Assembly: GCA_907163075.1 (NCBI GenBank)
Contig: CAJQTY010000002.1
Location: forward strand, 186,001 to 250,000
Length of the DNA stretch: 64,000 nucleotides
From: an uncultured Rhodocyclaceae bacterium
GTDB taxonomy: Bacteria; Pseudomonadota; Gammaproteobacteria; Burkholderiales; Rhodocyclaceae
Direction: 5' to 3'
The position numbers were made by a program, and so were the translations under genes. Under the pieces are notes generated by a model. It did no database searches. It was not told the origin of the DNA and saw only the letters and a program-made list of their open reading frames with translations. Shown piece after piece: positions 1,277 through 33,324 of this stretch (the stretch's first letter is position 1; the number at the start of each line of letters is the position of its first letter).

Positions 1277-1291
1277 GGTCATCGCAAACAA

Positions 1292-2951: not shown

Positions 2952-2973
2952 CTGGCGTATCTCTTTGGCGTTT

Positions 2974-3534
2974 TCAAATGGCCATCAATTCAATTTCTTT
3001 TTGGGCGAACTGTTTGTCGACCTCGGCCACATGCTTGTCGGTAAGTTTCTGGACATCGTCCTGCGCCCGACGCTCCTCATCTTCCGAGCATGCCTTGCTC
3101 TTTAGAAGATCCTTAAGTGTCGCGTTCGCGTCGCGGCGCAGATTTCTCATGGCAATCCGTGCATTTTCACACTCGTGCTTGACCACCTTGATCAGGTCGC
3201 GACGCCGTTCTTCAGTCAGTGCCGGCATTGGAACACGTATGAGTTCGCCCTGGGAGGCCGGATTCAGGCCCAGATCGGAATCGCGTATGGCCTTCTCCAC
3301 TTTTCCGGCCATGCCCTTCTCCCAGGTCTGAACGCCAAGCGTGCGTGGATCAATCAGGGTGATGTTGGCAACGGTATTTACCGGAACCATCGAACCATAG
3401 TAGTCGACCATAACATGATCGAGAAGCCCAATATGCGCACGCCCGGTACGAACCTTGGCCAGGTCCACCCTGAGCGCCTCAAGCGACTTCTGCATTTTGT
3501 ATTCGGTTGTGCTCTTTACATCTGCAATCGACAT
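2974..3534 (-). CDS. frr: Ribosome recycling factor
   Basis: With EF-G it splits the post-termination ribosome. The 186-aa product starts [20 protein letters not shown] and has the typical [23 protein letters not shown] segment of domain I and the [14 protein letters not shown] block that starts the return helices. The start at 3534 is preceded by a clear GGGAG Shine-Dalgarno sequence. A longer frame (to 3552) would run into the pyrH stop and lacks a suitable ribosome site. It lies 11 nt downstream of pyrH. Confidence 0.96.
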
Positions 3535-17585: not shown

Positions 17586-17887
17586 GTTGATGCCGCAAAA
17601 CCAAGAATCCGGCGCCTGCTTTTGTCATGAACAAAACCGGGAAATGCTGCGGCTTGGCGAGAACCACACCGAGCAGGTATCGAACGGTATGATGTGCGCT
17701 GACCAGAAACTGAGCGGCTCGCGAAAAGCAGGCAGATTCCGCGATTTGGACAGCACCCGTTCGAGCCGTTTCGGAAATCTGGTTCAGGGAATACAGAAGC
17801 AGGTTGAAATGCTGATGGCCGTCGCCGGTTGATGCACCGCCCAGCCTAATCCCCAGGCCATCCTTCACTCCATAACCGATAGACCTC
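17586..17887. other. Intergenic region between tex and the interrupted ArsC-like gene
   Basis: An 80-codon open frame (17590-17832, plus strand) and a longer minus-strand frame overlap here. Neither has a recognised family or ribosome site, so I do not call a gene. The region presumably holds the original promoter of the ArsC-like gene. Confidence 0.5.
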
Positions 17888-17947
17888 ATGACCAATTCGA
17901 ATGTTAAAACCTGCCGCATTTACGGCATCAGTAGTTGCGGAAAATGA
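17888..17947 (+). pseudogene. Orphaned 5' end of the ArsC/Spx-like gene at the left element junction
   Basis: ATG plus 18 codons read MTNSNVKTCRIYGISSCGK and then stop. The part TCRIYGISSCG matches ACRIYGIKNCD at the start of the complete ArsC-like gene at 32947. This is the original start of that gene, cut off from its body when the 15-kb element integrated. The stop arises from element sequence after the crossover. Confidence 0.8.
17915..17930. repeat. attL-type core of the integrative element
   Basis: CGCATTTACGGCATCA here and CGCATCTACGGCATCA at 32986-33001 differ at one of 16 positions. They mark the two junctions between element and host. The shared stretch codes for RIYGI of the ArsC-like protein, so recombination swaps one gene start for another without breaking the frame on the right side. 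Confidence 0.7.
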
Positions 17948-18157: not shown

Positions 18158-18436
18158 ATGTGGCCGTTTAAGAAGAAAACGATTGAGCTTGAGCGAGACA
18201 AGATAGGCGCCGCGATTGCAAAACTTGAAGCCTTCCGGAAAATTGGAGAAACCTTCAACTGCTTGGGGCGAACCTGTGTTGTGACTGGGCATTGGGACTT
18301 GCTCCCTTTCGTCGGGGTCGTCCCACTGCTTAGGTTTGACTATTGCGATGAATCTGGTCGTCTGCACGCTGCTACTTTTCTTGTTTCGGAATTGCCCGCG
18401 CTGGAAAATCAACAAAAGGAGATTGGAAATGGATGA
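18158..18436 (+). CDS. Hypothetical 92-aa protein of the element's left arm
   Basis: It starts MWPFKKKTIELERDKIGAAI after a GGAGAAG site. It has a basic amphipathic N-terminal helix and then a small beta-rich part with HWDLLPFVGVVPLLRFDYCD. There is no membrane helix or recognised family. It overlaps the next gene by 8 nt, so the two are probably cotranslated. The frame could extend to 18116, but the ATG at 18158 has the ribosome site. Confidence 0.6.
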   Translation: MWPFKKKTIELERDKIGAAIAKLEAFRKIGETFNCLGRTCVVTGHWDLLPFVGVVPLLRFDYCDESGRLHAATFLVSELPALENQQKEIGNG

Positions 18437-18800
18437 CAAATATCAAGCACTAATCGAAGCCTTGGCGTCAAAACTTGGCACAACGGCTGAACACCTGTGG
18501 GGCGTTCTTATTCGCCAGGCTCCAATGAGCGGAATTGTAGATATAGTGCTATGCGTGACAATATCCGCTGCAACTGTGTGGTTTGTGGCGCTTGTGAAGC
18601 ATAATACGACGGAGCCAAAGGCCACTAAGGAAAATGAATATCCGTATGCGGAGTGGAAGAATGAAGTGGCCTTTATTGCATGGATTGCTGCTTTTGTCGC
18701 TGGGGTATTTGCACTGTCTTATATAACCAACACGGCTCATGGGATAGTATCTGCATTTGCCAATCCTGAGTATTGGGCGCTCAAGCAACTTGTAAAATGA
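18429..18800 (+). CDS. Small phage-type membrane protein, 123 aa
   Basis: It begins MDDKYQALIEALASKLGTTA followed by EHLWGVLIRQAP. Two membrane helices follow (IVDIVLCVTISAATVWFVAL and VAFIAWIAAFVAGVFALSYI) with a charged loop between them. I know this N-terminal pattern from prophage membrane proteins of unknown role; holin or superinfection functions are possible but unproven. AAGGAG lies before the ATG. Confidence 0.65.
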   Translation: MDDKYQALIEALASKLGTTAEHLWGVLIRQAPMSGIVDIVLCVTISAATVWFVALVKHNTTEPKATKENEYPYAEWKNEVAFIAWIAAFVAGVFALSYITNTAHGIVSAFANPEYWALKQLVK

Positions 18801-18877: not shown

Positions 18878-19085
18878 AAGCATTGTGCTTGTGCCGGCTA
18901 TGTTGTTCGTTGCGGCGATCAATTGGCCAGTCGCTATCGGATTTCTGCTTTGCTGTTTAGCGATCGTCCTGCTCGAATTTTTCAAAGCCCTGCGGTGGGT
19001 TCAGGTTCTTGTTCTGAACGCCACCTTTTTTGGGTCTGTGATTGCCATCCTGATTTTTACCGGAACATCACTTTCCGGCTTCTAG
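18843..19085 (+). CDS. Small hydrophobic protein, 80 aa
   Basis: The product has a short basic N-terminus (MQIPAYIKRHPES) and two long hydrophobic stretches (IVLVPAMLFVAAINWPVAIG onwards and VQVLVLNATFFGSVIAILIF). It is almost certainly a membrane peptide. Its 3' end overlaps the convergent polyvalent gene by 18 nt. An earlier in-frame ATG at 18810 is possible. Function unknown. Confidence 0.55.
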   Translation: MQIPAYIKRHPESIVLVPAMLFVAAINWPVAIGFLLCCLAIVLLEFFKALRWVQVLVLNATFFGSVIAILIFTGTSLSGF

Positions 19086-22000
19086 GATTCGCTGGTAAAG
19101 GGCTTCCTCTTTCTTTTCCAGTTCCTTGACGGCCATCCGGCGATAGCCAAGCGGCTTCGTTTCATCGTTAAGCAGTTCCGTTTGCCGGTCACGCAGCATG
19201 GAAATTGACTCGCGTTGATCTTGAGCGGCCCCGGCCAACTTGAACAACTCCTTGTTGCCGGCGAGCTTGTTCATTCCATCCTGGTCGTGTTCCTTGCGCG
19301 CCGCCTTGTATTCATCCCATGCCCTGGTCGCCTCCTCGACCTTCTCCCAATAGGCGCTGCGGGCATCCGAAACCCGGCCAGTTCCGGCAAACTTCCTGAC
19401 AATTGGCATTTCGTGCAGATCTGGCGCTTCTTTGTGCCACCCCGCCACGTAGCCGAAGTGCATTAAGTCCGCTACAAAGGCGCCTGTTCCGCCCGTCATG
19501 GTTCGAGTCCAGTACTTCAGCGTTTCCGGAGAAACATCTATCGCGCCGGACGTAGCCTTGGTGCCCCCCGTCAGCCGGCCAAGTCCGCGCGCCGAGTCGT
19601 CGTAGAGGCTGCCTGATGTCGTCCGGTTCATCTTCATGAAATCCGGTTTATTATCGCTGAACGGGCTTTCTGGAACGATCTTCCGTCCGAAGTCGTTCAC
19701 GTTCAGCGCTGGCTCCATGGCAATCTTGACCGCCGTTGGCAGCATGGTGATTGGGCTTTGCACTGGATTGCCGACCGGCGAGAAGTGTTCGAAGAACGAA
19801 CTCGCCAAGTGCGATGCCGTTTTCATCGGCGACGTGCCAGATTTGATATTGCGATAGACGTTGCCCAGGGCAAAGAAAAATCCGTAGCCATAGGGAACGG
19901 GTATCTTGATGCGAGAATCGCCGACACGGATCAACAGATTGCGGTCTTTCTCGTAGTCCGGAATCTTGTCCCATTCGTCGTCGTCGAATTGCAGCGCAGC
20001 TAGCGCCGCCAGCGCCGTCATGCCAGCAACCAGCGCCCAAGCCTGTTTCTTGTGCTCGCCATGCGCCAGCGCCTTCCACAATGCCGCTGTGCCTTGGATA
20101 TTCGGATTGGCGAACAGGTAGAGCGCGCCGGCCGTTGCTCCAATCTCTCCCTTGCGGTTGAAATTGACGGTGACGTTCTTGGCTGCGCTGGCTGCCTTGT
20201 TGGTCGATCCTGTTTCATTGCGCACCGCCACATAGGAGGCAAGCCGCATGGCGTTCTCGGAGGCTGCGTTCAAATGCTCTACCCAGCCAAGCAGGCCACC
20301 GACAACTTTCCGGCCTGCCGCCCGTGCTGCTTTCCACACGTGGCGATTTTTGGCGTTCTCAATAACCCCTACGTATTCGTTGTAGGCCGCATCAACATCC
20401 TTTCCGATTCGCTCGATGTCGCCCAGGTAGGCCGCCCCCGTGGAGCCGCCATTCATCCGGTACTCTCGAACGTCAGGCGACTCGATGCCGCGCATGGAGA
20501 AGCGCAGTATTTCACGAAAGGCCTTCGGGTAGTTCGCTAGCGCCTTGGCGGCCATCCCCGCCCCATGGTTCCCGGTCAGGTTGATCAGACCGCCCGTTAA
20601 GTCGCGGGCCATATTCACCAGAATGAATTCCGGGTTGTAGCCGGTGTAGGCTTTCGACAGCCAGGCATTTAGACCGCGCCCGGCCTGTAGAACAAGGTTC
20701 AATTGCTCGACACCCATGTTCTTGTAAGCCCGTGCCAGAATATCGTCATTGATCTGGACGCGAACCGACTTGCCTTGCACATAAACGATAGCCTCATTCT
20801 CCTGCGTCATCGGCGAAGCCATCGCCTGAACGCGAGGATCGCCATGCACGGGCACGATGACCATGCCGTTACGGCCCATGGCGTTGACGAAGCGCTGCGC
20901 ATCGCTCTTGCTGTCGAACGCTCCCATCGCTACTCCGTTCTTCTCGACGCTGTAGCTGGTCTTGCCTTCGACGTAGACCTTGCGTTTCTCTGGCTTGCCG
21001 ATCGTTATCAAATCCGGATCAAGCGCCCCAACTTCCAGCGCCAGCTTGATCAGATGCTGACCAACACGGTTCTTCTCAGTCGCTACAATGGCGCGTTCAT
21101 GGTCGCGCAGGATGTTCTCGACAACGAACTCTTCGCGCTTGCCGTGGCCAAGACGGCGTTTCTGCCGGCCATTGACCGACATGCCAGGGCCGGTTCCGGT
21201 CTTGGCTTCACGGTCGCCGCCCTTCAGCGGAACGTAGTACTGATATGCCTTCTGCCAGGCATCGGCCATATCCTTGTCGATGATGCCGCTCTTCAGCAAC
21301 AGGTCACGCGTCTGGTTGGTGATGTCGCGCAACTCATTGGCCAGTGTCGCCAGGGCGGGTTTCACGCCAGCCAGGTACTGCGCCGCTTCGGCATCCGTAA
21401 TGCCGGCCGCTGTGGCGTTCTTGTCGCTGGTGATCTTCTGGATATGGGCGTTCGCTTCGGCCGTGTGCTGCGCTTCGAGAAAGTCGGCCACCTGCTGCAT
21501 GGTGAAGCCGGCCTTCTGGATTTTCTTGATCAGCGGCTGAACGAGCTTTTCGCGGAAGTTCTCGATACGGACAGAAACGCGGCCATGATAGCGCTCTTCG
21601 GCAGCGTATACGTCTGCATTCTCGGATAGCTTTACGCCGTGCTCGGCAGCCCATTTGTTCGCCGTGACGAATCGGTTGAACTTGTCCTGAACGGTGCGCT
21701 GTGCGGCTTCGGCCTTTGTTTCTGCGGGAAGAGACGCGCTTTGGCCGGCGCGCGAGAACCGTGTCCCTGACAAAAGACTTGGCGCATTATCTGGAAGATG
21801 TATCTTGACATCTCCATCATCAGACCTTACAGTAATCGTGCGCTCGGAGTTGGGGTGGGTCGGAAGCCGGTTAACACTGGCCTGTATGGGCAATAAGGGC
21901 CCAGATCGTAAATCCTCAGAAGGTTGTCTGGCATTGTTAATAAGCCCCGACACCCGAGCGGCATCTTCCCTCTTAATGTACGATACATTCCCCGCAAGAA

Positions 22001-25000
22001 GTTCGTTAGCCAGATAGCTGGCTGATTCGTCTTTTCCGAACATCGTAGAGATGCCTGTAACCTTGATGACGGTCTTTCCTTCCTTCAGCGTCTCATTCGT
22101 CAGCGCAACGGCAATCGGGTTGCCGTTTGGGTCACGCGAGTTGATGAAGACTCGCCATCCTCGTCCGTCTTTGAACACGACGCGCGGGGATTGAAGCTCA
22201 AAAGGAAGCCGGCCAATCTCATCAGGAGTGATTTCAGGATGTGTGTTGAAGATGTGCCGTGTGTGCTCGAAGTCCATTACGATCGGACGGAAGATACCGG
22301 CGATGTTCAGCACCTTGCCTGGTTTGGAGATGATTGGATGAACAGGCTCTTTGACTTCATTGCGGTCAAAGACGCGCTGCGCCCATTGCTTCGTCGGGCT
22401 GCTATCACGCGACAACGCCGACCCCCGGTAGAGATTCGTCTTGCCGCCATGCTTCAGGCTGGCCAGCGCACTCAGCACCAGCGCCTCAACGTCCTGATCT
22501 GTCCATTCCTTCACCCATCCGAGTTTGCGCAGCTTGGCGCGCACCCAGGCCACAACTTTAGACCATCCCTTCAGCGCCTTGGCCTTCGACCCCATCTCGG
22601 CCAACGCTTCCTCAATCGAGCGCACCTGCGAATAGCCGTACTTGTCCTTGATCTTCTTGGCGTCCAGTTGCAATCTGAGATTGCTCTTCCAGACGTCCAA
22701 CAGGACCGGATCAAGCGATTTCCCGAATAAGTTGCTCAGTCCAGCGTGCTCGGCTTCGTGAATAATTGTGTCCTGCGCGTGCTCGATATCGCTCAGATTG
22801 TCCTGAACCAGATAGATTGCCCCGTTGTGGAAGGCGCCGGCCACTTCGCCAGCGGCGTCGGCGTCCTCAATCTCAGTCTGCAAATCGTCAGGCAACTGGC
22901 TTTCGCGTTCGACGGTAACGACAGGAACGCCGGGGAACTCCTTGCGGAAGGTGCTGGCTACCGCATTCAGGTCGGAGGGGAGGATGCGGGCGTCTGGAAC
23001 TCCAGTCCGAGCAAGTTGCGGATCTACTTCTCCGCTTTGCGCTCCGCTTCCTTCTCTTCTTCCCGCCTCAGCCAATCCGTCAGTCCGGGATTCGGCTTGA
23101 ACATGTCCTCGTCGCTCATGACGAGGCCGGAAGCGATATAGTGCATCCGCTCTTTCGCGCTCAAAGGAATAAACGGAGATCCACGCCTCTCTTGTTTGCC
23201 CGGCTTCTTTTGCAATTGTTCCTGGCTCATTTAACGCCCTTTCAATGAAATTGAACCCAACAGGTAAATTATCCTTCAGCGCTTCTTTTTGAATAGCATA
23301 CAACCCAACGAGTTGCGCAAAAAGCTCTTGTTCAACAAATTCAATAGGCGCATCAATAAAAGCATTGGTGTCCAACGGATACCACAACACATCGTCCATA
23401 AAACCAGAGTCAAACAACGTTCTAGCTTCTTTGATAACAAGCTTCATGTCCGGGTGAGCAGATAGGGTCGACATCACCTTCCCGCCGTCTACGACCATAT
23501 CAGCGGCGTGACCAACCTCATGCCCAAGGACGCGCTTGAATACAACATCGTCAAAGTCAAACATCCCTTTGCCAAGGCTGATTCTCGATGTTGCAACGTT
23601 GTAACTGGCCTCAAACAACTCGTTCTGATACACAACCCCTGTTACCGTCTTTATTTTTGCCAACAACTCACGAGGGAACCCACTCTCACGAAAATGAGAA
23701 AATGCCCGGAACACGCGCGCCATGCTCTTGACTGGTATTGGTGAAAAGCCAGCCTCTTTGTTCCACGGGCCTATCTTTCCAATGTCGGCGCGCGAGAACA
23801 TCGCCCCGCCTGTGCCCACAAGATGCTTTTCCCGGATGAAAAACCCGCCATTCTTGGCAAACGTGAATTCGTCAATTTCCTTGGCTTGAGCTTTTGTCAG
23901 GTCAGTTCGAACGACGCCGCGAATAACCTTCCCCTTGGCGGTTGTGTGTTCGATGATTTCAAGCCCTGCGGCTTGCGCTGCGGACTCTGCTGCAACTTTG
24001 TCGACAACAGGCTTCCCTTTGCTTGCCGAAGTCTCTGCGACATCCTCTACGGGCTTCCGGCGGTTCGGCACGGTAATGTTCTCCATGCGGTCGAACAGCT
24101 CGCTTATGTCCTCAATACCGGTGTAGTCCATGCTGCTGCTGTGTGCAGGCGCTTTGGCGCTGTCCGTCTGCCTCTCGAGAACTACGATTCGCGCCATTAC
24201 CTGAGTTCCTGCGCGCTCGAAGGTTACGGCAGGCAGGTTGATGTCGGCAACGAGGTACATCCCCTTGGCCGGCGAGTAGGTTTCAGTGCGATTGCCTGGG
24301 GTTATTGAACTAATGGCAACAAGATTTACTGCTGAATTTTTCGGTTGGCCTTTTTGGCGAACGAAATGCGGACCCGCCCCAACTCCATCAATAACAAGCG
24401 GCCCTGAAATCTTCAGGGGCGGGCCAAACGCATTCAGAGTAAGCGTGTCGTTTTCGTAGATAGCGCCATGCACGGGGTCGGTATAAATAGGTTTCGCCGG
24501 CCTTGTCTGCTCCTCGTACATCCACTTCTCGAACTTCTTGTCTGCTGCCGGTCCGGTCGGGATCAGCGCTACGATCCGCCCGCCGTCGCGCAAATGCGTT
24601 GCCGCCTTCGCCAGATGGTCAATGGCTGTCCGACCAGCAGAGCCGAACGGCGGATTCATCACAATCGCGTCGTACTTGTTGACGACATTTAGCTCTTCAA
24701 AGTTATGGTCGAGAATCTTTCCGTCAAAGACCATCGCCAGCCGTGGGCGTAGCGTCATGCTTGGTTCAATCGCCGTCTTCTCTGCGGAGTCTGGCATCCA
24801 TCGCGCAATCGCGCCATGTCCTGCGCTTGGCTCTAGAACGTCTTCCCCGGCGCGTATGTCGGCAAGTTCCACCATCTTCAAACCGACAGGTTCCGGCGTG
24901 GCGAAATAATCAGCGCCTTCCTGCGCCTTGGTCTTGCTCGTCTTCTTCTGTTGCCCGAAGTAGAAAGCCTTGGCCCGGTCGTACTCAGTTAGCGCATCAT

Positions 25001-28000
25001 TCGCCGCCTTGTCGCGCTCCTTGCCGCCTTTCCCTTCGCCATTCATGCCGGCTCGGTAATCGTCTGATTCCTCGAAGCCGGTAATGAAGGCATCCTTCAA
25101 GGCCCTGGCCTGCTCGCCCATGCCTAAGTTCTCTGCGGTGCTGGAGCGCGTGGCGATGGTCGTGGCGAAGGCCCACTTCTCCCAATTCGTCCCGGTGTTC
25201 AGGTAGCGGAAAATTGCATCAGTCACTTGCCCGGTGCGGTAGATGCGCCCCTCTTGCTGAATGGCGGTCGTTGGCGCCGTAGGCTGCCCGAGATTGAACA
25301 GTACGCGCTGATGCTTTCCTGTCGTGTCGTGCAGGCTGATGCCTTCCTTTCCGGCTGCCGACTGAACGAGAATCACCTGCGGCCCGCTGGCATCATCCTG
25401 AAACTTGGCAACATTCGCCCGCCGCGTCTTGGTCGGCACATCGCCATTGAACAAAAGAACGTCCGGGAACTCCTGTTTGAACATGTCGATGGGCGATGAC
25501 TGGCGGAACAAGTCTGAAGCGATAAGATCGCTGAATTCTCGATTGAACTCGTTGACTACCTGATTCCATGCCTCGGCATCCACTACAGAAGCAGTAGCGG
25601 CCTGTTCTTTGATAGGGCGCTCACTGATAAGGAACGGATTGAATCCGCCGCCTTTCTTGTAGTCGTGGAAAACAACAACCTTCCGTCCCATGGCCAAGTG
25701 TTCCCGGATGTGCGGAACGACTTCACGCGCCTTGATCGATTCCAGCAAGTACCGGCGAGACAGGTAATCAAACTTCTCTGCAATGGTGTCGGCCAGTGAA
25801 TAAAGGGCTTCAGTTCGGCTCTTGTCGGAGTCTCCTGTTTCTTTGCGCTTCGTCTCAAACCATTGCAACGCTTCGTCAATCCGTTGCCCGATGGCCGAAT
25901 CAACCAGAATGAAACGGCGGTCATAGTCGGCCTTCACGTCGAGCATGCGGCCAGCCAGTGCGCCACTCCTTTTCAGCATGGCATTGAACTGGCGCTGCAT
26001 GATTCCGCTATCCACCTTCGCATCAGGAGCGGTCAGCTTCCCGTAGCGGATGCGATAGCCGAAGTTCTGCACAAAGAATTGGTCCTTGTTGCTGCCTTCG
26101 TTGTAGCCTCTTATGCTCCCTTCTTTCTTGGTACGGCCTTCGTTGTAGTCGAAGATGTAGCCGTTGGCCCAGTCAATTGACTTCTCATAGGCGAAGGGCG
26201 TGGCGGATAACATCAGAGCGCGGGGGCGTTTCTCCCCTTGGTTATCGGCTATTTCCTGTTTGATGATTGCTCGTGCTGCTTCGAGCTTTCGCGCTGCTGC
26301 GTCGGCTCTCGCCTGATGCACCTTTGCCATCGGCCAGTCGCGCGCATCATCAGACGCATTGGCTCTCTTTGCATCGCTCTGCGCAGAATTAATTTCCGTA
26401 ATCAAATCACGGTGCAGCATGTCGCCGCGAGTGAAATCGCCGCTCGGGTGCATGGTCAGTGCGCGCAACGTCTTCAGCGCATTGGTATTCGTTCCGTCCT
26501 TATCCAACGCCAGATAGTGCGCCTCGTCATGCACAACCAAATCCCACTTGCGGGCAGCAAGTGAATCATTGGCGCCCATGTTGGCGTAAGTCGTGATGAC
26601 GATGCCCTTGCCTGCATCTGTGGTGTTTTCAAGGCGGGCAAGATTCAGGCCGAACAGTTTCCCGGTCCGCTGCCAGTCCTCGATGATCTTGTCGTTCGGC
26701 GCGACGATCAGGATATTGTTCTTGCTGTTGTTTGAAAACCGCTTGATGATTCCAAGACCGAGGAACGTCTTTCCCGTTCCCGTCCCGTTGGTGAATAGCA
26801 TCCCGTAGCCGTCAGGCTTGGCGAACCGTTCCTCTGCCTTGGCTACGTCTTCCTGCTGCCCTTCATTCAGGATCGGGAGAGACTCGGCGATTGATGCGCT
26901 TGGGCTGGTCGACGCCTTAGCCTGCGCTGCCTTGAGGTCGGCTAGTTGAGGTCCGCTTGTAGCAGCGTCTTGAGTTGCCTTTGCTGCATCGGGCTCAATG
27001 GGTGGTCCGAAGAGGCCAAAATCACCGCTTCCGCTACTGACAGAACTTCCGGCAGAGCCTGGCGTAACTCGGGTCGATCCTGTGTAAATCGACTGATCGC
27101 CGCCCGTTCCAGAAGCAAGGGCTTCATGTCCAGATACGCCGAGGCTACCGACTGGCCCACTTTCGCCTTCAGTTCCTTGTACTCCCTGTCCTCCAGTTCC
27201 GCCATTTCCATCCCGCCCAGTTTGAACGACTTCCGCGCCCACGCTGTTTGCAGGGATTGTGTCTCCGCTATCTGGTTCCAGATCGGTGCCGCTACGCTGG
27301 TTAGGGACATTTTCAATCTCCAGTTCTTTCTTGTCTTCAACGGAAACTACCGTCTTGGCAGAGTCGGCGCCCTGATCCTTGTACCGGCCTGCCATGCCGA
27401 TATACGCACCCTGCAAATGATCGAGTGTTATCTGGTCGGTGATGTCCGTGCCGAACTTGGCGCCCAGTGCGTCGAGGACGAAGCGCGCAGCCTCCTTGAA
27501 TTTATAATAGCCCTTGCGGAATGCCGCGTCCATAAGACGAGTCAGTACCGGGATTATTTTTTGCTCTTGCTCGGGCGTGAGGTTTGCTCGGAATGGCTTG
27601 CCGATGATGTCGCCAAAATCGCTCATGGCGTCGTCAAAATCTGCATCAGCCTTTTCGATTGCCGCCCGGTCGGCTGTGAAAATCGTGTTCTCAGCGCCTA
27701 GTGAAGTGTTTGGCTTGCCGGCATCTCCCACAAGTGCAGCCGCCCCATTGCTGGACTCAGATGCTCCGGCATTATCGTTAACTCCGTCTCCGACGCTTTG
27801 CACAACTGGTAAATTTCCTGCGCTTCCGCCTGGCTGATAACGCGATCCTTCACGGCTTCCAGAATCCACTTCGGCAGCATCGCTATTCGCTTTCTTGGTC
27901 GCCGCCAGTTTGTCCTTGAGCTTGCGCGCTTCCTTGCCGATGGCGGTCTTAGGCTCATCGAAGATGCCCGCTTGAGTGTTGAATAAGTCGACTTGGTCAG

Positions 28001-28523
28001 CCTTGACCTTCGGCGAACTATCCTCCGCTATCTTCGCCTTCTCTTCGGCTGCAAGCCGTTTCTGTTCCTCGGCGAATTCCGTGGCCGCTTGTGAATTTGT
28101 CTGGCCCTCGAGGGTCAGCGCAGGCGCTACTTCTTCTTTGGCCGATTCGCTGCGTGCTGCTTCAGGCGCTGCAACAGGATCGCTTCCGCTACCAGTTCCT
28201 TCAGGTCCGTCTCTGAGCCAGTCGGGTTCTCCTGTTTCGGTGTCGGCTTCGTTGTTTTGTTCTGCATCATGAGCCTGCCTTTCAAACATCACATCTTCAA
28301 TGTAGCCGCGCATCTGCCGGGTTGCGGCAATATAGAACTCGCGGCCTGAAAACCGATTATGCGCGTCTGTCAGGATGGCGTCGACTTCGTCGTAATCGAC
28401 TACAGCCAATGCTTCCTTGAGCATCCCGTCGTACCGTGTTCTGGCGCGCTCATCGAGCGCTTTGACTGCGGCTTTGTGCCGCGTCTCCATCGTTTCGAAA
28501 ACGATTTTCTCGACGGTATGCAC
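19068..28523 (-). CDS. Giant phage polyvalent protein (helicase, methylase, peptidase, nuclease, LPD38 modules), 3151 aa
   Basis: The GTG start at 28523 follows AGGAG. Modules with approximate residues: N-terminal region with low-complexity linkers (1-540); superfamily 2 helicase with Walker A GTGTGKT near 580, DEAH near 664 and motif VI QQEGRIYRTGQ near 1093; adenine-methylase-like domain with EPSAGHG near 1232 and NPPFGSA near 1289; zinc-peptidase-like HEVGHAAD near 1668; a second one, HEAEHAG, near 1923; a MuF-C/PBECR-like block near 2080-2160 (RHIFNTHPEITPDEIG, ISTMFGKDESASY); and an LPD38-like C-terminus near 2600-2900 (NPEFILVNMARDLTGG) with one hydrophobic helix. Known polyvalent proteins are thought to enter the host with phage or plasmid DNA and protect it. 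No stop codon interrupts 9.4 kb. Confidence 0.85.
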   Translation of the reverse strand: MHTVEKIVFETMETRHKAAVKALDERARTRYDGMLKEALAVVDYDEVDAILTDAHNRFSGREFYIAATRQMRGYIEDVMFERQAHDAEQNNEADTETGEPDWLRDGPEGTGSGSDPVAAPEAARSESAKEEVAPALTLEGQTNSQAATEFAEEQKRLAAEEKAKIAEDSSPKVKADQVDLFNTQAGIFDEPKTAIGKEARKLKDKLAATKKANSDAAEVDSGSREGSRYQPGGSAGNLPVVQSVGDGVNDNAGASESSNGAAALVGDAGKPNTSLGAENTIFTADRAAIEKADADFDDAMSDFGDIIGKPFRANLTPEQEQKIIPVLTRLMDAAFRKGYYKFKEAARFVLDALGAKFGTDITDQITLDHLQGAYIGMAGRYKDQGADSAKTVVSVEDKKELEIENVPNQRSGTDLEPDSGDTIPANSVGAEVVQTGRDGNGGTGGQGVQGTEGESGPVGSLGVSGHEALASGTGGDQSIYTGSTRVTPGSAGSSVSSGSGDFGLFGPPIEPDAAKATQDAATSGPQLADLKAAQAKASTSPSASIAESLPILNEGQQEDVAKAEERFAKPDGYGMLFTNGTGTGKTFLGLGIIKRFSNNSKNNILIVAPNDKIIEDWQRTGKLFGLNLARLENTTDAGKGIVITTYANMGANDSLAARKWDLVVHDEAHYLALDKDGTNTNALKTLRALTMHPSGDFTRGDMLHRDLITEINSAQSDAKRANASDDARDWPMAKVHQARADAAARKLEAARAIIKQEIADNQGEKRPRALMLSATPFAYEKSIDWANGYIFDYNEGRTKKEGSIRGYNEGSNKDQFFVQNFGYRIRYGKLTAPDAKVDSGIMQRQFNAMLKRSGALAGRMLDVKADYDRRFILVDSAIGQRIDEALQWFETKRKETGDSDKSRTEALYSLADTIAEKFDYLSRRYLLESIKAREVVPHIREHLAMGRKVVVFHDYKKGGGFNPFLISERPIKEQAATASVVDAEAWNQVVNEFNREFSDLIASDLFRQSSPIDMFKQEFPDVLLFNGDVPTKTRRANVAKFQDDASGPQVILVQSAAGKEGISLHDTTGKHQRVLFNLGQPTAPTTAIQQEGRIYRTGQVTDAIFRYLNTGTNWEKWAFATTIATRSSTAENLGMGEQARALKDAFITGFEESDDYRAGMNGEGKGGKERDKAANDALTEYDRAKAFYFGQQKKTSKTKAQEGADYFATPEPVGLKMVELADIRAGEDVLEPSAGHGAIARWMPDSAEKTAIEPSMTLRPRLAMVFDGKILDHNFEELNVVNKYDAIVMNPPFGSAGRTAIDHLAKAATHLRDGGRIVALIPTGPAADKKFEKWMYEEQTRPAKPIYTDPVHGAIYENDTLTLNAFGPPLKISGPLVIDGVGAGPHFVRQKGQPKNSAVNLVAISSITPGNRTETYSPAKGMYLVADINLPAVTFERAGTQVMARIVVLERQTDSAKAPAHSSSMDYTGIEDISELFDRMENITVPNRRKPVEDVAETSASKGKPVVDKVAAESAAQAAGLEIIEHTTAKGKVIRGVVRTDLTKAQAKEIDEFTFAKNGGFFIREKHLVGTGGAMFSRADIGKIGPWNKEAGFSPIPVKSMARVFRAFSHFRESGFPRELLAKIKTVTGVVYQNELFEASYNVATSRISLGKGMFDFDDVVFKRVLGHEVGHAADMVVDGGKVMSTLSAHPDMKLVIKEARTLFDSGFMDDVLWYPLDTNAFIDAPIEFVEQELFAQLVGLYAIQKEALKDNLPVGFNFIERALNEPGTIAKEAGQTREAWISVYSFERERADALYRFRPRHERRGHVQAESRTDGLAEAGRREGSGAQSGEVDPQLARTGVPDARILPSDLNAVASTFRKEFPGVPVVTVERESQLPDDLQTEIEDADAAGEVAGAFHNGAIYLVQDNLSDIEHAQDTIIHEAEHAGLSNLFGKSLDPVLLDVWKSNLRLQLDAKKIKDKYGYSQVRSIEEALAEMGSKAKALKGWSKVVAWVRAKLRKLGWVKEWTDQDVEALVLSALASLKHGGKTNLYRGSALSRDSSPTKQWAQRVFDRNEVKEPVHPIISKPGKVLNIAGIFRPIVMDFEHTRHIFNTHPEITPDEIGRLPFELQSPRVVFKDGRGWRVFINSRDPNGNPIAVALTNETLKEGKTVIKVTGISTMFGKDESASYLANELLAGNVSYIKREDAARVSGLINNARQPSEDLRSGPLLPIQASVNRLPTHPNSERTITVRSDDGDVKIHLPDNAPSLLSGTRFSRAGQSASLPAETKAEAAQRTVQDKFNRFVTANKWAAEHGVKLSENADVYAAEERYHGRVSVRIENFREKLVQPLIKKIQKAGFTMQQVADFLEAQHTAEANAHIQKITSDKNATAAGITDAEAAQYLAGVKPALATLANELRDITNQTRDLLLKSGIIDKDMADAWQKAYQYYVPLKGGDREAKTGTGPGMSVNGRQKRRLGHGKREEFVVENILRDHERAIVATEKNRVGQHLIKLALEVGALDPDLITIGKPEKRKVYVEGKTSYSVEKNGVAMGAFDSKSDAQRFVNAMGRNGMVIVPVHGDPRVQAMASPMTQENEAIVYVQGKSVRVQINDDILARAYKNMGVEQLNLVLQAGRGLNAWLSKAYTGYNPEFILVNMARDLTGGLINLTGNHGAGMAAKALANYPKAFREILRFSMRGIESPDVREYRMNGGSTGAAYLGDIERIGKDVDAAYNEYVGVIENAKNRHVWKAARAAGRKVVGGLLGWVEHLNAASENAMRLASYVAVRNETGSTNKAASAAKNVTVNFNRKGEIGATAGALYLFANPNIQGTAALWKALAHGEHKKQAWALVAGMTALAALAALQFDDDEWDKIPDYEKDRNLLIRVGDSRIKIPVPYGYGFFFALGNVYRNIKSGTSPMKTASHLASSFFEHFSPVGNPVQSPITMLPTAVKIAMEPALNVNDFGRKIVPESPFSDNKPDFMKMNRTTSGSLYDDSARGLGRLTGGTKATSGAIDVSPETLKYWTRTMTGGTGAFVADLMHFGYVAGWHKEAPDLHEMPIVRKFAGTGRVSDARSAYWEKVEEATRAWDEYKAARKEHDQDGMNKLAGNKELFKLAGAAQDQRESISMLRDRQTELLNDETKPLGYRRMAVKELEKKEEALYQRILEAGK

Positions 28524-28855
28524 TCGGCACGCTCCTGCCCTACGGTTTTGTACGCCGGCCCTGCCCTAGCCTGTTGCGAGTTTTCCAGCCAAGCGGCTTT
28601 GAACCCGGTCCATCCCCGTGAGCACCCTTCCCGCAGAGCTATTTCAAGCGAAAGACCCGCTTTCAGGGCTTCGCTTTCGATTCCAGCGATTGCGGTTTTC
28701 GTAACGGGTGATTTTTTCGACTTGCGGAGGGTTAGCCAATCTGCCGAGACCTCGGGATCAACGCCCAAGCTTTCGAGATGCGCTTGCGCATCGAATGCCT
28801 TGCGTTTTGTATTTTGGTTAACTGATGGTTCACTTGATGGTTCACTGATGGTTAG
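28400..28855 (-). pseudogene. Phage replication-protein remnant (C-terminal part)
   Basis: The frame reads ADWLTLRKSKKSPVTKTAIA, then LEIALREGCSRGWTGFKAAW, the usual C-terminal module of phage replisome-organiser or DnaT-like proteins. Upstream it runs only into a short SEPSSEPS repeat before a TAG stop at 28856, so the N-terminal DNA-binding domain is missing. Downstream the frame continues over the start of the polyvalent gene, probably past the original end. Confidence 0.6.
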
Positions 28856-29022
28856 CTAGCGAGTACGGCATTGATGCTTATGCCGAGTCGTGGAGCAAGC
28901 TGTCCAAGGCGCAGCGCGCGATGGTCGGCGCCGCCGAGCATGACCGGCTGAAGAAGGTCGCCGCGAGCATTCCGGCAGCCGCCGAGACCGTTGATACCGA
29001 AACGGGCGAGGTCAGCAAATGA
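28849..29022 (+). pseudogene. C-terminal fragment of the gene preceding YqaJ
   Basis: The open frame gives ASEYGIDAYAESWSKLSKAQ, then RAMVGAAEHDRLKKVAAS and TVDTETGEVSK, and overlaps the YqaJ ATG. It has no start codon of its own and is cut at the same place (about 28850) as the divergent replication remnant. The position suggests the annealing partner (RecT- or Erf-like) of the exonuclease, but the remaining 57 codons are too few to name it. Confidence 0.5.
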
Positions 29023-29645
29023 CTGAGGAACTACAACGAACTAATGAATGGTTCGCAGATCGATGTGGCCGTTTCACGGCATCGCGCTTCTTTGATGTTC
29101 TTGCTACGAACAAGAGAACCGGCGAGCCGCTGAAGGCGTACCACGATTTGATCTGGCAAGTCGTTGTCGAGCGCATGACCGGAAAGCCCGTCGAAGGTGC
29201 GCAAGGGATTGCGCTTGCTTGGGGGCAAGAAGTTGAGCCCTTTGCCAGATCAGCCTACGAACTTGAAACAGGGAACGTGGTTATTGAAACTGGCCTGATT
29301 CTGCACCCGGTTTTCACTTTCGCGGGCGCCAGTCCGGACGGTCTTCTTGGCGACGATGGAATCCTTGAGCTGAAGTCGCCGAAGTCTAGCGCTGTCCATT
29401 TGCAGCGTTTTATTGACGGAATGCCGGAAGAGTACCGGGCCCAGGTGCAAGGGCAACTATGGTGCAGCGGTCGCAAGTGGGCTGACTTCTGCTCATACGA
29501 CCCAAGGCAGAAAGAGAAATTTCAACTTCTCCGAATTCGCGTTGAGCGCGACGAAGCCTACATCGCAAATCTTGAATCCGCCGTTCTCCGCGCCGAAGTC
29601 GCCGCCCAGGAACTGCAAGCCAAGCTAGAAAGGATCGCAGCATGA
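29019..29645 (+). CDS. YqaJ-family viral exonuclease (lambda Exo type)
   Basis: The 208-aa protein degrades DNA ends to load an annealing protein during phage recombination. Visible motifs are the N-terminal RTNEWFADRCGRFTASRF, WGQEVEPFARSAYE (catalytic Glu helix), GASPDGLLGDDGILELKSPK (Asp and Glu-x-Lys of the PD-(D/E)XK core) and QVQGQLWCSGR. It overlaps the truncated upstream gene by ATGA and the next gene by 4 nt, so it belongs to the rightward early operon. Confidence 0.9.
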   Translation: MTEELQRTNEWFADRCGRFTASRFFDVLATNKRTGEPLKAYHDLIWQVVVERMTGKPVEGAQGIALAWGQEVEPFARSAYELETGNVVIETGLILHPVFTFAGASPDGLLGDDGILELKSPKSSAVHLQRFIDGMPEEYRAQVQGQLWCSGRKWADFCSYDPRQKEKFQLLRIRVERDEAYIANLESAVLRAEVAAQELQAKLERIAA

Positions 29646-30682
29646 GCAATGCGCGCGTAGCCGCCCGCGCCGCCGTCGCGCTTGGCTCATCCAAGGCCGA
29701 AGCCGAACTAACCGCACTCGCCCTGCAATCGAAATCGATCACCGCCGTAACCAGCCCTGACGGGCGCACAGAATGCCACGCTGCCGCGATGACAGCCAAA
29801 GCCGCCCGTGTTGGTATCGAGAAGGCCGGGAAAGCCGCCAGGGATGACGCCACGCAGTTCAGTAAAGCTGTAATCAGCGAAGAAAAAAGATTGGTCGCGC
29901 TGATTGAGCCGGAGGAAACGCGCCTCATAGCCATCCGCGACGAGTGGGATTCACGCATCGCCCGAGAGAAAGCCGAGAAAGCCGAAGCCGAACGACTGGC
30001 CCTGGCGCAGATCATGACGCGCATCGTCAGCATCAAAAACTTCCCTCTGCTCACCGCCGACGCCACGGCAGACGCCGTGCTGGATGACATTGAGCTACTT
30101 GAAGAGATGGAGATTGATGACAGTTTCAAGGCCTATTACGGAGAGGCTGTTGAGGCTAAAGCCGCATCGCTGCAAAAGCTGCGTGAAATCTATGCCGCCA
30201 AGGTGCGCGCTGAAGCGGAGGCGGTCCGCCTGAAGCAGGAGCAGGATGAACAGTTCGCCAGGATCAAGGCCGAACGGGAGGAAATGGCACGGATTCAAGC
30301 TGATCTGAACGCACGCGAAGCCGTGGAGAAGGCAGAGCGTGACGCCGAACTCAAGCGCCTGCAACTAATCCGAGACGAGATTACAGCAGCGCAGTTTCTG
30401 ATGGCTGCCGAGGCTGAGAAGAAGGCCAAGGCCGAAGAAGACAAGCGGAAAGAGCAGGATCGCGTTCAAGCCGAGAAGGTTGCAGAAGAGAGGCGCATTC
30501 TCGATCAGAAGGCCGCTGACGAGCTGCACAGGCTGTCCGAATTGCGAAAAGCAACAGAAGAAAAGGATCAAACGCTGAATCAGCAGATCAACGACTTGGC
30601 TAGCCAGATGACTGAGCACGAGAAAAAGATGGTCATCCACTACATGCAGCGCTTGATCTATCAGCGCCAGGTTGCGGCGTAA
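29642..30682 (+). CDS. Phage coiled-coil protein (346 aa)
   Basis: The first 100 residues contain TAVTSPDGRTECHAAAMTAK and then a long stretch of Lys, Glu and Ala heptads (residues about 105-330) that should form a coiled coil. Proteins like this, related to DUF1351-type phage proteins, often follow exonuclease or recombinase genes; their role is unknown. The start overlaps the yqaJ stop. The C-terminus ends in HYMQRLIYQRQVAA. Confidence 0.6.
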   Translation: MSNARVAARAAVALGSSKAEAELTALALQSKSITAVTSPDGRTECHAAAMTAKAARVGIEKAGKAARDDATQFSKAVISEEKRLVALIEPEETRLIAIRDEWDSRIAREKAEKAEAERLALAQIMTRIVSIKNFPLLTADATADAVLDDIELLEEMEIDDSFKAYYGEAVEAKAASLQKLREIYAAKVRAEAEAVRLKQEQDEQFARIKAEREEMARIQADLNAREAVEKAERDAELKRLQLIRDEITAAQFLMAAEAEKKAKAEEDKRKEQDRVQAEKVAEERRILDQKAADELHRLSELRKATEEKDQTLNQQINDLASQMTEHEKKMVIHYMQRLIYQRQVAA

Positions 30683-30708: not shown

Positions 30709-31155
30709 ATGAGAACGTTTAAACACTTCGATTCTGGTTATAGCAATGTCTGCCCTATTTGTAAAACGGCAAAAGATTGCGAGACGGTTTTAATTCCAAT
30801 TCCAGGAACTGAAGACGGAGGCATCTGCGAGGCTCAGCAGATGCATAAAAAGTGTCTCGACCTGCTCGTGGAAATGGTAACAAGCGCTCCGTTATCCATG
30901 ACGACCAATAAGATTTCCTCAAATGGTTGGCGCCCTATTTCCTCTGCGCCAAAAGATTGCACAGTTATTGATATTTGGCGATCAGGATTCGGCGGAAAAC
31001 GTTGCCCTAATATGGTCAGGGCTGATTATGGAGGCCGGAACGTATTTTATACGCCAGCAGAATCAGGGCCGTCTTGTGTCCGCGATGCAACTCACTGGAT
31101 GCCATTGCCGAAACCTCCGAATGGGTTGAGCGACGGGTTATGCCACAACGAATGA
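30709..31155 (+). CDS. DUF551-containing phage protein (148 aa)
   Basis: The N-terminal half has a CPICK cysteine pair and further Cys and His residues that could bind zinc. The C-terminal half has the DUF551 pattern WRPISSAPKDCTVIDIW followed by DATHWMPLPKPP. DUF551 proteins are small accessory proteins of phages and prophages without a known role. AAGGAAAA lies before the ATG. Confidence 0.7.
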   Translation: MRTFKHFDSGYSNVCPICKTAKDCETVLIPIPGTEDGGICEAQQMHKKCLDLLVEMVTSAPLSMTTNKISSNGWRPISSAPKDCTVIDIWRSGFGGKRCPNMVRADYGGRNVFYTPAESGPSCVRDATHWMPLPKPPNGLSDGLCHNE

Positions 31156-31792: not shown

Positions 31793-31980
31793 CCTACCTG
31801 CACAAAGAGCAGTTGCAGGCATTGAGCAAGGCCAAGCGCAGGACTAGAATCGTCGTATGGCTAAAGAGCCTTGGCGTCCGGTATATCGAAGACGCGAACG
31901 GCTGGCCCATTGTCGAAGAGTCAGCGCTGTTCCCGAAAACGGAGGCGTCGAAGAAAGAGCCGAGGCTAAACCTTGCGTAA
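31789..31980 (+). CDS. DUF4224-family protein beside the integrase
   Basis: The 63-aa product contains LQALSKAKRRTRIVVWLKSL and RYIEDANGWPIV, the DUF4224 pattern. These small proteins commonly sit just upstream of, and overlap, phage tyrosine integrases. They may help in excision or recognition of arm sites, but this is not proven. It overlaps the integrase start. Confidence 0.75.
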   Translation: MTYLHKEQLQALSKAKRRTRIVVWLKSLGVRYIEDANGWPIVEESALFPKTEASKKEPRLNLA

Positions 31981-32920
31981 CCGTAAATTGCCCGTTCGGA
32001 TGCACGAAAACCACGGCGCATACTACCGCGTTAAAGACAACAAGTGGACGCCGCTTGGTAGAGTTTACGCCGAAGCGCTCAAGGCATATGCGGACCTGGA
32101 AACGAAAAAAACAGGGAAGATTCCCGACCTGATTGACCGCTGGCTATCGGTAAAGCAAATAGCCGACTCGACGCGCAAGAACTACACGGCCATTGCCGCA
32201 CGCTTGAGAAAAGCGTTCGAGCAATTCAACCCCGAAGATGTGCGCCCTTGCCACTTCTACCAACTCATTTCCGCGAAGGCCATATCAGACCCGGTGGCCG
32301 GACATTACCGCTCAGTGATGATTGGCGTGATGCAACTGGCCCTCGAAGAAGGGACGATTGACCGCAACCCGATCAAAGAAGTGAAGCAGTACAGTTCAAA
32401 AACACGCGATCGATATTTGACTGACTCCGAATTTGAGGCGATCTATGCATGCGCCAGCCCGACCATGAAGGCCCTCATGATTATGCTGTACCTTACCGGG
32501 CAGCGGATCAGCGACGTGAAAACGATTAAATACTCGCAACTCACGGAAGAGGGGATTGTTTTCGAGCAGATCAAGACGAAGAACCGGCTCTGCGTGGCAT
32601 GGTCGCCCGAATTAACTGATGCTGTCGCGCAAGCCAAGTCGCTGCATACGAACGTGAAAGGATTCACGCTGTTTCACACGCATACGGGCGCGATATTCAG
32701 CCACTCGACCATCAGGACGCTATGGGACCGTGCAACAGCAAAGGCGGGAATCAAGGATGCCCATATGCACGACATCCGGGCGAAGACCGCGACGGATGCA
32801 AAAAAACAGGGAATCAACGCCAAAGAACTGCTCGGGCACAAAAGCGAATCGTCAGCTTTGCGCTATCAGCGAAGCAAAGAAACGCCTCTGGTTACACCTG
32901 TTAAAATGAAGAAATCTTAG
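31973..32920 (+). CDS. int: Tyrosine-type integrase of the element
   Basis: At 315 aa it has an N-terminal arm region (HENHGAYYRVKDNKWTPLGR), a SAM-like core-binding domain and a catalytic domain. Catalytic residues are visible: Arg in LTGQRISDVK, Lys in QIKTKNR, HxxR in HMHDIRAKTATDAKKQG, His in LLGHKSES and the nucleophile Tyr in LRYQRSKE. The start is TTG at 31973, overlapping the DUF4224 stop. The next ATG would remove nine residues that match related integrases. It lies beside attR and is expected to have inserted the element into the ArsC-like gene. Confidence 0.9.
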   Translation: MRNRKLPVRMHENHGAYYRVKDNKWTPLGRVYAEALKAYADLETKKTGKIPDLIDRWLSVKQIADSTRKNYTAIAARLRKAFEQFNPEDVRPCHFYQLISAKAISDPVAGHYRSVMIGVMQLALEEGTIDRNPIKEVKQYSSKTRDRYLTDSEFEAIYACASPTMKALMIMLYLTGQRISDVKTIKYSQLTEEGIVFEQIKTKNRLCVAWSPELTDAVAQAKSLHTNVKGFTLFHTHTGAIFSHSTIRTLWDRATAKAGIKDAHMHDIRAKTATDAKKQGINAKELLGHKSESSALRYQRSKETPLVTPVKMKKS

Positions 32921-32946: not shown

Positions 32947-33324
32947 ATGGAAAATACACAAATAAAACAAAGGCTTAATGCGTGTCGCATCTACGGCATC
33001 AAGAACTGCGACACCATGAAGAAAGCCTTCGCCTGGCTGGAAGCCAATGGCGTCGCCTATGAATTCATCGACTACAAGAAAGACGGCGTCGCGCGCGACC
33101 ACCTGCCCGACTGGAACCAGCGCGCCGGCTGGGACTTGCTGCTCAACACCCGCGGCATGATGTGGAAGCGGCTAAGCGACGCCGAACGCGCCGACGTCGA
33201 CGAAACCAGGGCGCTGGCGCTGATGACCGACTACCCGACCCTGATCAAGCGCCCGCTGCTCGATAATGGCACGACCCTGCTCGTCGGCTTCGACCCCGAA
33301 CGCTACGCGGCGGAACTGAAATGA
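32947..33324 (+). CDS. ArsC/Spx/MgsR-like thioredoxin-fold reductase
   Basis: The 125-aa protein has the family start CRIYGIKNCDTMKKAFAWLE with a single catalytic-type Cys, FIDYKKDGV, WDLLLNTRGMMWKRL and PTLIKRPLL, as in YffB-like ArsC relatives. The exact substrate is unknown in this subfamily. The first 13 residues (MENTQIKQRLNAC) come from the integrated element and replace MTNSNVKTC, the original start left at 17888. The stop overlaps the hslO ATG. Confidence 0.85.
   Translation: MENTQIKQRLNACRIYGIKNCDTMKKAFAWLEANGVAYEFIDYKKDGVARDHLPDWNQRAGWDLLLNTRGMMWKRLSDAERADVDETRALALMTDYPTLIKRPLLDNGTTLLVGFDPERYAAELK
32986..33001. repeat. attR-type core of the integrative element
   Basis: CGCATCTACGGCATCA, 15 of 16 identical to the left core. 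It lies inside codons 14-19 of the rebuilt ArsC-like gene. Everything to the left of it, including the ATG at 32947, is contributed by the element. Confidence 0.7.

What the first reader, a model, noticed from the sequence alone, without database searches (positions are those of the whole stretch)
19068..28523. Intact 3151-codon polyvalent protein with helicase, methylase, two peptidase-like and nuclease-like modules
A single uninterrupted minus-strand ORF holds Walker A GTGTGKT, DEAH, a helicase motif VI, an EPSAGHG/NPPF methylase, HEVGH, HEAEHAG, a MuF-C/PBECR-like block and an LPD38-like C-terminus. Polyvalent proteins (Iyer, Aravind and colleagues) are thought to protect incoming DNA and attack host defences. 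This one stands in a chromosomal element without visible virion genes, yet has suffered no stop over 9.4 kb, which suggests recent loss of the other genes or continued use.
Basis: partly seen in the sequence, partly recalled or inferred. Interest (0 to 1): 0.85.

Follow-up and report, generated by a model that had tools for sequence, protein, structure and literature searches.

The report
Giant injected-protein gene in wrecked prophage
A very long gene of the kind that phages use for a many-tool protein injected with their DNA survives without stop codons inside the 15-kb wreck of an old integrated phage; it is a known kind of gene in a dying prophage, not a new element.

Summary
The ORF is real: 19068-28523 (-), GTG start, 3151 codons, no stop. 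It is a DarB-like/polyvalent protein: SF2 helicase, DNA methylase, MuF_C and LPD38 are supported by profiles. The HEAEHAG block is a recurrent polyvalent module; the HEVGH block has no detected relative. "Intact" is doubtful. In 42 of 46 distinct long homologues with a closed 5' end, 1,055-3,293 residues lie up to the helicase Walker A; here 580. Directly upstream lie two broken phage genes: the last 57 codons of a recT-like gene, and a ~101-codon internal piece of an O-like replication gene whose homology ends about 30 nt before the GTG. With yqaJ and the next gene they match EBPR podovirus 1 in order and strand. Best reading: a temperate podovirus prophage, integrated in the 5' end of an arsC-family gene next to tex, that lost at least two blocks, including all virion genes and probably the 5' part of the polyvalent gene, leaving 15.1 kb. 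The helicase-methylase core shows no decay, so the loss is recent or the rest is still used. A satellite-like or host-adopted function is not excluded but has no positive evidence.

The parts
17912..17930 (+). left copy of the integration site, TGCCGCATTTACGGCATCA, inside a cut-off arsC-family start (reads MTNSNVKTCRIYGISSCGK*)
18423..18800 (+). small membrane-protein-like ORF (by eye) at the left end, opposite in strand to the big gene
   Evidence: 84 phage records match weakly (best E 3e-6), 83 of them Staphylococcus phages
19068..28523 (-). polyvalent (DarB-like) protein gene, 3151 codons, probably 5'-truncated
19398..19982 (-). LPD38 domain (residues 2848-3042)
21969..22250 (-). MuF_C domain (residues 2092-2185)
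22746..22760 (-). HEAEH motif of a recurrent polyvalent-protein module
23508..23522 (-). HEVGH motif in a stretch (residues 1580-1900) without relatives found
24510..24911 (-). DNA methylase module (residues 1205-1338; EPSAGHG, NPPF)
25137..26870 (-). SF2/Strawberry-notch-like helicase (residues 552-1129)
28553..28855 (-). internal fragment (~101 codons) of a phage O-like replication gene, matching residues 104-193 of 237 of EBPR podovirus gp48
28849..29022 (+). last 57 codons of a recT-like gene, overlapping the yqaJ start; matches residues 264-311 of 326 of EBPR gp5
29019..29645 (+). YqaJ-type exonuclease, 58% identical to EBPR gp6
29642..30682 (+). 346-aa phage protein, matches EBPR gp7 (56% over residues 6-167) and Lessievirus JC1_28
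30709..31155 (+). DUF551-like small phage protein (21.8 bits, just below the curated cut-off of 22)
31973..32920 (+). tyrosine integrase, 315 aa
32983..33001 (+). right copy of the integration site, TGTCGCATCTACGGCATCA, in arsC
32947..33324 (+). arsC-family target gene with a start supplied by the element (MENTQIKQRLNACRIYGI...)

Best explanation
This is the deletion remnant of a temperate podovirus prophage related to EBPR podovirus 1 in its early genes and to the Bcep22-like (Lessievirus) and Parlo-like phages in its big gene. The phage integrated at about codons 4-8 of an arsC-family gene that in some relatives follows tex directly. A whole prophage of this layout should read att - lysis - polyvalent - virion genes - terminase - replication (one strand) | recT - yqaJ - early genes - int (other strand) - att; this order is inferred from free phages 45A6 and EBPR podovirus 1, not from an integrated copy. 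Here at least two blocks are gone: most of recT through the 5' half of the O-like replication gene, and the end of that gene through terminase, virion genes and, most likely, roughly the first 800-1650 codons of the polyvalent gene. What remains is an open 3151-codon frame with helicase, methylase, MuF_C and LPD38. In the living phage this protein is presumably packaged in the capsid and injected to shield and service the incoming DNA; here no gene to package it was found. It has no stop because the loss is recent. Shown: ORF, domains, gene fragments, site, uninterrupted site in relatives. Inferred: size and number of deletions, 5' truncation rather than a naturally short gene, age, packaging role.
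For: Two broken phage genes directly upstream, on the strands expected: O-like fragment 47% identical to EBPR gp48 residues 104-193 of 237, recT-like C-terminus 44% identical to gp5 residues 264-311 of 326, then YqaJ = gp6 58% and the next gene = gp7 56% over its first half, in the same order. In 11 of 13 phage or viral-contig loci our residues 262-463 begin the best alignment at their residues 1113-1941 (counted from the preceding stop), that is 812-1651 residues more. Of 46 distinct homologous ORFs of 2500 aa or more with a closed 5' end, 42 have the Walker A at 1055-3293, against 580 here (in a stricter motif-selected subset 15 of 17 at 1403 or later). SLT or DdrB-ParB domains occur in the N-terminal parts of 4 of 6 homologues scanned. 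Residues 56-285 resemble the linker just upstream of the helicase inside fused proteins L031 and L024 (weak, filters off). No match to 37 virion-cluster and lysis queries in the window. Divergent layout in 45A6 and EBPR podovirus. Site: 19-bp copies, 17 of 19 identical, at 17912 and 32983; tex is followed by arsC within 8-16 nt in three genomes of the genus. GC 54.5% against 63-66% in the flanks. JC1's homologue gp69 was found in purified virions by mass spectrometry (PMC9144972, passages read).
Against: Four of the 46 homologues (L028, L037, L044, L049) have only 420-693 residues to the Walker A; in L028 the N-terminal half is a separate upstream ORF. Stand-alone helicase-methylase proteins of 841-1283 aa also exist. 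So a naturally short gene is possible. An AGGAG lies 8 nt before the GTG, and GC by codon position looks coding in the first 60 codons. Residues 1-120 have no relative found in phages, viral contigs or 398 other genomes of the order, so the truncation point cannot be fixed. The early genes and the big gene match different phages best: EBPR podovirus 1 (a partial record) has no giant gene annotated, and no YqaJ match was found in the 13 records that carry the big gene, several of them fragments. Against the whole phage collection the recT-like piece reaches only E = 0.006 and 0.02.
Confidence: 0.85

Rival explanations
1. The prophage is a remnant, but the polyvalent gene is a naturally short, complete gene, as in L037 or L028, and still makes a protein from the GTG at 28523.
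For: AGGAG 8 nt before GTG; coding-type GC by codon position in the first 60 codons; 4 of 46 long homologues have 420-693 residues to the Walker A; the helicase-methylase core departs from the columns invariant in eight phage homologues at 11 of 378, within the 6-21 range of the phages themselves.
Against: Linker residues 56-285 resemble the interior of fused proteins; the homology of the broken O-like gene ends about 30 nt before the GTG, which fits a deletion joint at or just inside the ORF.
Confidence: 0.25
2. The 15-kb element is a functional phage satellite, or a gene kept by the host against other phages, with the polyvalent protein as its main cargo.
For: Open integrase and yqaJ frames, open 9.4-kb frame, both ends recognisable; Iyer and colleagues propose that hosts may capture such proteins against incoming elements (PMC5512222, passages).
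Against: Recombination and replication genes are broken; no close full-core relative in the other 198 family genomes or 398 order genomes searched, the best being a partial copy; no capsid or terminase match and no regulator among the element proteins scanned with Pfam (the small ORFs at 31.2-31.97 kb were not scanned); no second copy in the genome.
Confidence: 0.07
3. The gene is a pseudogene already, kept open only by chance since a very recent deletion.
For: One nonsense change is expected per ~0.3% neutral divergence, so a deletion younger than that leaves the frame open; probable loss of the native start.
Against: Cannot be told from the best explanation without a sister copy; no decay sign in the core.
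Confidence: 0.5

Closest known systems
DarB-like proteins of Serratia phage Parlo (gp81, 3764 aa) and Burkholderia phage JC1 (gp69, 4515 aa) and other Bcep22-like phages
   Same: helicase-methylase core (Parlo 46%) or C-terminal part with the LPD38 region (JC1 37%); one giant late gene
   Different: Parlo's starts with a transglycosylase and has ~1080 more residues before the shared core; both stand behind a full virion gene cluster; JC1's showed no core match
Giant polyvalent genes of IMG/VR contigs L022, L023, L030, L031
   Same: best sequence relatives, 56-60% over ~1300 residues, 68-73% in the helicase-methylase core
   Different: longer N-terminus; the part 1580-1900 with HEVGH is not shared
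EBPR podovirus 1 (JF412294)
   Same: recT - exo - gp7 order and an O-like gene on the other strand; yqaJ 58% identical
   Different: terminase, portal, scaffold and coat genes present; no giant polyvalent gene annotated in the partial record
Ruegeria phage 45A6
   Same: divergent layout with early genes and integrase on one strand and the polyvalent gene and its neighbours on the other
   Different: complete phage; protein 3912 aa, 44% in the core

Membership tests
polyvalent proteins (Iyer, Aravind et al. 2017) | several unrelated enzymatic or nucleic-acid domains in one long polypeptide | tested here: met
   helicase, methylase, MuF_C, LPD38 in one 3151-aa frame
polyvalent proteins (Iyer, Aravind et al. 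2017) | contains LPD-type or other polyvalent-associated domains | tested here: met
   LPD38 118.9 bits against a cut-off of 27
polyvalent proteins (Iyer, Aravind et al. 2017) | encoded by a phage, prophage or conjugative element | tested here: met
   integrase, YqaJ, broken recT and O-like genes, att copies
DarB-like virion proteins of Bcep22-like/Parlo-like phages | homology over the helicase-methylase core and the C-terminal part | tested here: met
   core with Parlo, C-terminal part with JC1 and relatives; no single one of these named phages matched over both, while 45A6 and contigs such as L023 and L030 did
DarB-like virion proteins of Bcep22-like/Parlo-like phages | N-terminal transglycosylase and long region before the helicase | tested here: not met
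   no SLT in our protein; Walker A at 580; SLT found in Parlo, L024 and L030
DarB-like virion proteins of Bcep22-like/Parlo-like phages | last gene of a virion gene cluster | tested here: not met
   no match in the window with 37 virion-cluster and lysis queries
DarB-like virion proteins of Bcep22-like/Parlo-like phages | protein present in virions and injected | not testable with these tools
   JC1 gp69 is reported as virion-associated (PMC9144972, passages)
phage P1 DarB antirestriction protein | homology to, and cis protection against type I restriction like, P1 DarB | not tested
   P1 DarB itself was not compared here; the name is taken from phage annotations
phage satellites | own intact replication and regulation genes plus means to use a helper's capsid | tested here: not met
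   O-like and recT-like genes are fragments; no regulator or packaging gene recognised among the proteins scanned
phage satellites | recurrent gene order in several genomes | tested here: inconclusive
   no close full-core relative in the other 198 family and 398 order genomes sampled, but these are samples and gene order was not searched as such

The most novel reading that the evidence does not exclude
A 15-kb element reduced to integrase, a few early genes and a truncated polyvalent protein is still alive: the shortened 3151-aa protein is made from the GTG at 28523, and is either packaged by a related helper phage or used by the host cell against incoming DNA.
Probability: 0.06. Interest if true: 0.75.

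Novelty: new member of a known kind. Interest (0 to 1): 0.25.

Why it matters
It turns an apparent stand-alone 'intact polyvalent gene' into an ordinary step of prophage decay, and shows how a long open frame can mislead when homologues are not consulted. It adds an arsC-family/tex integration site; an integrase stub stands beside arsC in a second genome of the genus. The stretch with HEVGH (residues ~1580-1900) is a possible new polyvalent module.

Tried and rejected
The exact 11-mer search for direct repeats did not show the att copies, because they differ at 2 of 19 bases; they were found by reading the printed ends and placed. No tRNA in the window, so a tRNA site was dropped. PADLOC hits (12 families) are generic helicase or methylase matches, so a defence-system reading was rejected. 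A fold of residues 1580-1880 (HEVGH) from a single sequence failed (pLDDT 35), and the PDB sequence search of that stretch gave one hit at E = 0.82. The HEAEHAG module folded well in part (block means 69-93 over residues 1-170 of the 232 modelled, eight sequences) but matched no solved structure (145 matches with E up to 10, none at 0.001 or better); it matched six predicted viral proteins at 0.001 or better (116 matches in all). A test of selection by dN/dS was not made: the closest relative found is ~73% identical in the core, and no post-deletion sister copy was found. Plasmid records were not searched after the first attempt failed on length. A literature search for 'polyvalent protein' with 'phage satellite' gave 0 papers, and one for 'arsenate reductase', 'prophage integration site' and 'attB' gave 0; both are narrow. 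The confidences of the explanations overlap and are not meant to add to 1.
Full report
OBSERVATION. The frame at 19068-28523 (-) is open for 3151 codons from a GTG and 3165 codons stop to stop. With the base composition of the stretch about 127 stops would be expected; the other five frames have 45 to 137. Pfam finds ResIII (residues 552-674), Helicase_C_4 (1034-1129), Helicase_C, MuF_C (2092-2185) and LPD38 (2848-3042) above the cut-offs, MuF_C and Helicase_C narrowly; MTS is below its cut-off. PHROGs give long matches: phrog_10691 covers residues 318-1340 with profile positions 1474-2494 of 3925, and methyltransferase families cover 1190-1338. In the PDB one distinct sequence, an SNF2/Rad54-family helicase, matches the core profile at 0.001 or better.

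HOMOLOGUES. The phage collection shows the same core in Serratia phage Parlo, Klebsiella phage ZX1, Pseudomonas phage Skulduggery and Ruegeria phage 45A6, and the C-terminal half in Burkholderia phages of the Bcep22 group; the annotations vary, DarB-like antirestriction protein being frequent. Ten IMG/VR contigs carry closer relatives, 61-73% in the core, and 62 loci in named genomes carry relatives. In its own family of genomes only its own copy is close: 27 of 199 genomes, its own included, match at E <= 0.001, but the others are short matches of at most 62 bits. In the order 59 of 399 match, its own included, the best after its own being a partial copy of 307 bits. Both are samples of larger groups.

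IS THE GENE WHOLE? In 11 of the 13 phage or viral-contig loci compared (L022-L034), our residues 262-463 begin the best alignment and correspond to residues 1113-1941 of the other ORF counted from its preceding stop, 812-1651 residues more than here; L028 (its residue 218) and JC1 (C-terminal match only) are the exceptions. Over all 75 loci examined, 46 distinct homologous ORFs of 2500 aa or more have a closed 5' end; in 42 the position matching our Walker A (580) is 1055-3293, in four (L028, L037, L044, L049) it is 420-693. A stricter subset picked by motifs gave 15 of 17. The exceptions matter: L028 has its N-terminal half in a separate upstream ORF that matches the fused N-termini of five other homologues, and L037 has a start of its own behind ORFs that I did not identify. 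There are also stand-alone helicase-methylase proteins of 841-1283 aa. In the N-terminal parts of six homologues Pfam found SLT in three, DdrB-ParB in one and nothing in two. Our residues 56-285 show weak but ordered similarity to the linker just before the helicase in L031 and L024, with low-complexity and composition corrections off. Residues 1-120, with the 14 codons before them, have no relative found in phages, viral contigs or the other 398 genomes of the order searched. I therefore take truncation as likely, not proven.

WHAT LIES UPSTREAM. Reading 28300-29120 shows two broken genes in the 0.5 kb between the big ORF and yqaJ. On the minus strand 28855-28553 encodes ~101 codons of the conserved C-terminal half of phage O-like replication proteins: 75 phage records match, some annotated as replication proteins, and the piece corresponds to residues 104-193 of the 237-aa EBPR gp48. 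Neither the gene's start nor its proper end is there. On the plus strand 28849-29022 is the last 57 codons of a recT-like gene overlapping the start of yqaJ by 4 nt, matching residues 264-311 of 326 of EBPR gp5; recT and exo overlap in EBPR too, by 8 nt. The pairwise E-values are for nine chosen proteins; against the whole phage collection the recT piece reaches only E = 0.006 (a Providencia phage, annotated recombination protein and exonuclease) and 0.02 (EBPR gp5), the two records found, so its name rests on order and overlap as much as on score. YqaJ is 58% identical to gp6, and the next gene matches gp7 and Lessievirus JC1_28 and relatives (11 phage records).

LAYOUT AND SITE. In EBPR podovirus 1 and Ruegeria phage 45A6 the early genes run one way and the late genes the other. 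Cut at an attachment site beside the integrase, this would give the order seen here, minus everything between the O-like gene and the big gene. The element ends in two copies of a 19-bp stretch (17 identical) at 17912 and 32983, the right one inside the start of an arsC-family gene. In three genomes of the genus tex is followed within 8-16 nt by arsC (tex matched in 3 of the 14 sequences compared, so in the other arsC loci fetched it was not found within the flank). So the element is 15.1 kb, with 54.5% GC against 63-66% in the flanks. In another genome of the genus (G597, L138) a 79-residue integrase stub, 54% identical, stands beside arsC, so the site appears to have been used more than once.

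STATE OF THE GENE. Among 378 columns that are invariant in eight phage homologues ours departs at 11; leave-one-out values for the phages are 6 to 21 (the two most distant of the 11 rows of A1, L032 and L033, were left out of this count). So the core shows no sign of decay. A neutral frame of this length would take one nonsense change per about 0.3% divergence. Both facts fit a recent deletion; they also fit continued use and cannot tell the two apart.

MODULES. The HEAEHAG module has relatives in other polyvalent loci; of the seven aligned, three have HExxH (L099, L102, L025), three HExxxH (L057, L050, L064) and one neither (L074). The model (pLDDT 72 overall) matches predicted viral proteins, including one annotated with MuF_C, but no solved structure. 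The HEVGH stretch has no relative found in the phage collection, in viral contigs (a pattern scan that reaches close relatives only), in 398 other genomes of the order, among the fetched loci or in Pfam. 'Peptidase' is recalled motif knowledge for both and stays unproven.

FUNCTION. For the living phage relatives the likely role follows from the literature: polyvalent proteins are thought to travel with the DNA and to counter host systems (PMC5512222, abstract part and passages read); JC1 gp69 was found in purified virions (PMC9144972, passages read); Parlo's homologue is assumed to be DarB-like because of its helicase, methyltransferase and transglycosylase domains (PMC6606913, passages read). 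In this remnant no capsid gene to carry it was found. The genome has one match to a terminase family elsewhere (C1:157975), which was not studied.

VERDICT. A real, well-preserved member of a known protein class in a prophage wreck. Interest is modest; the parts worth a further look are the HEVGH stretch and the reuse of the arsC site.

Noticed in passing
17586-17911: About 330 bp between the tex stop and the left att copy are absent from three relatives, and the left arsC start (MTNSNVKTCRIYGI) has an N-terminal extension unlike the MLKVYGI of L141; this may be the scar of an earlier element at the same site.
   Followed up: partly
L138 (G597:C56) 391-700: Integrase C-terminal stub (54% identical) directly before arsC in another genome of the genus, with what looks like transposase sequence (read by eye, no search) before it.
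   Followed up: partly
window 22824-23786, residues 1580-1900: Stretch with HEVGH and no relative found in the searches made; a possible new module.
   Followed up: partly
G000:C1:157975-158613: A terminase-like ORF (544 aa) elsewhere in the same genome, so another prophage may exist.
   Followed up: no
L028 5041-17404: A viral contig in which the polyvalent gene is split into two ORFs with a small ferritin-like-looking ORF (by eye only) between them.
   Followed up: no
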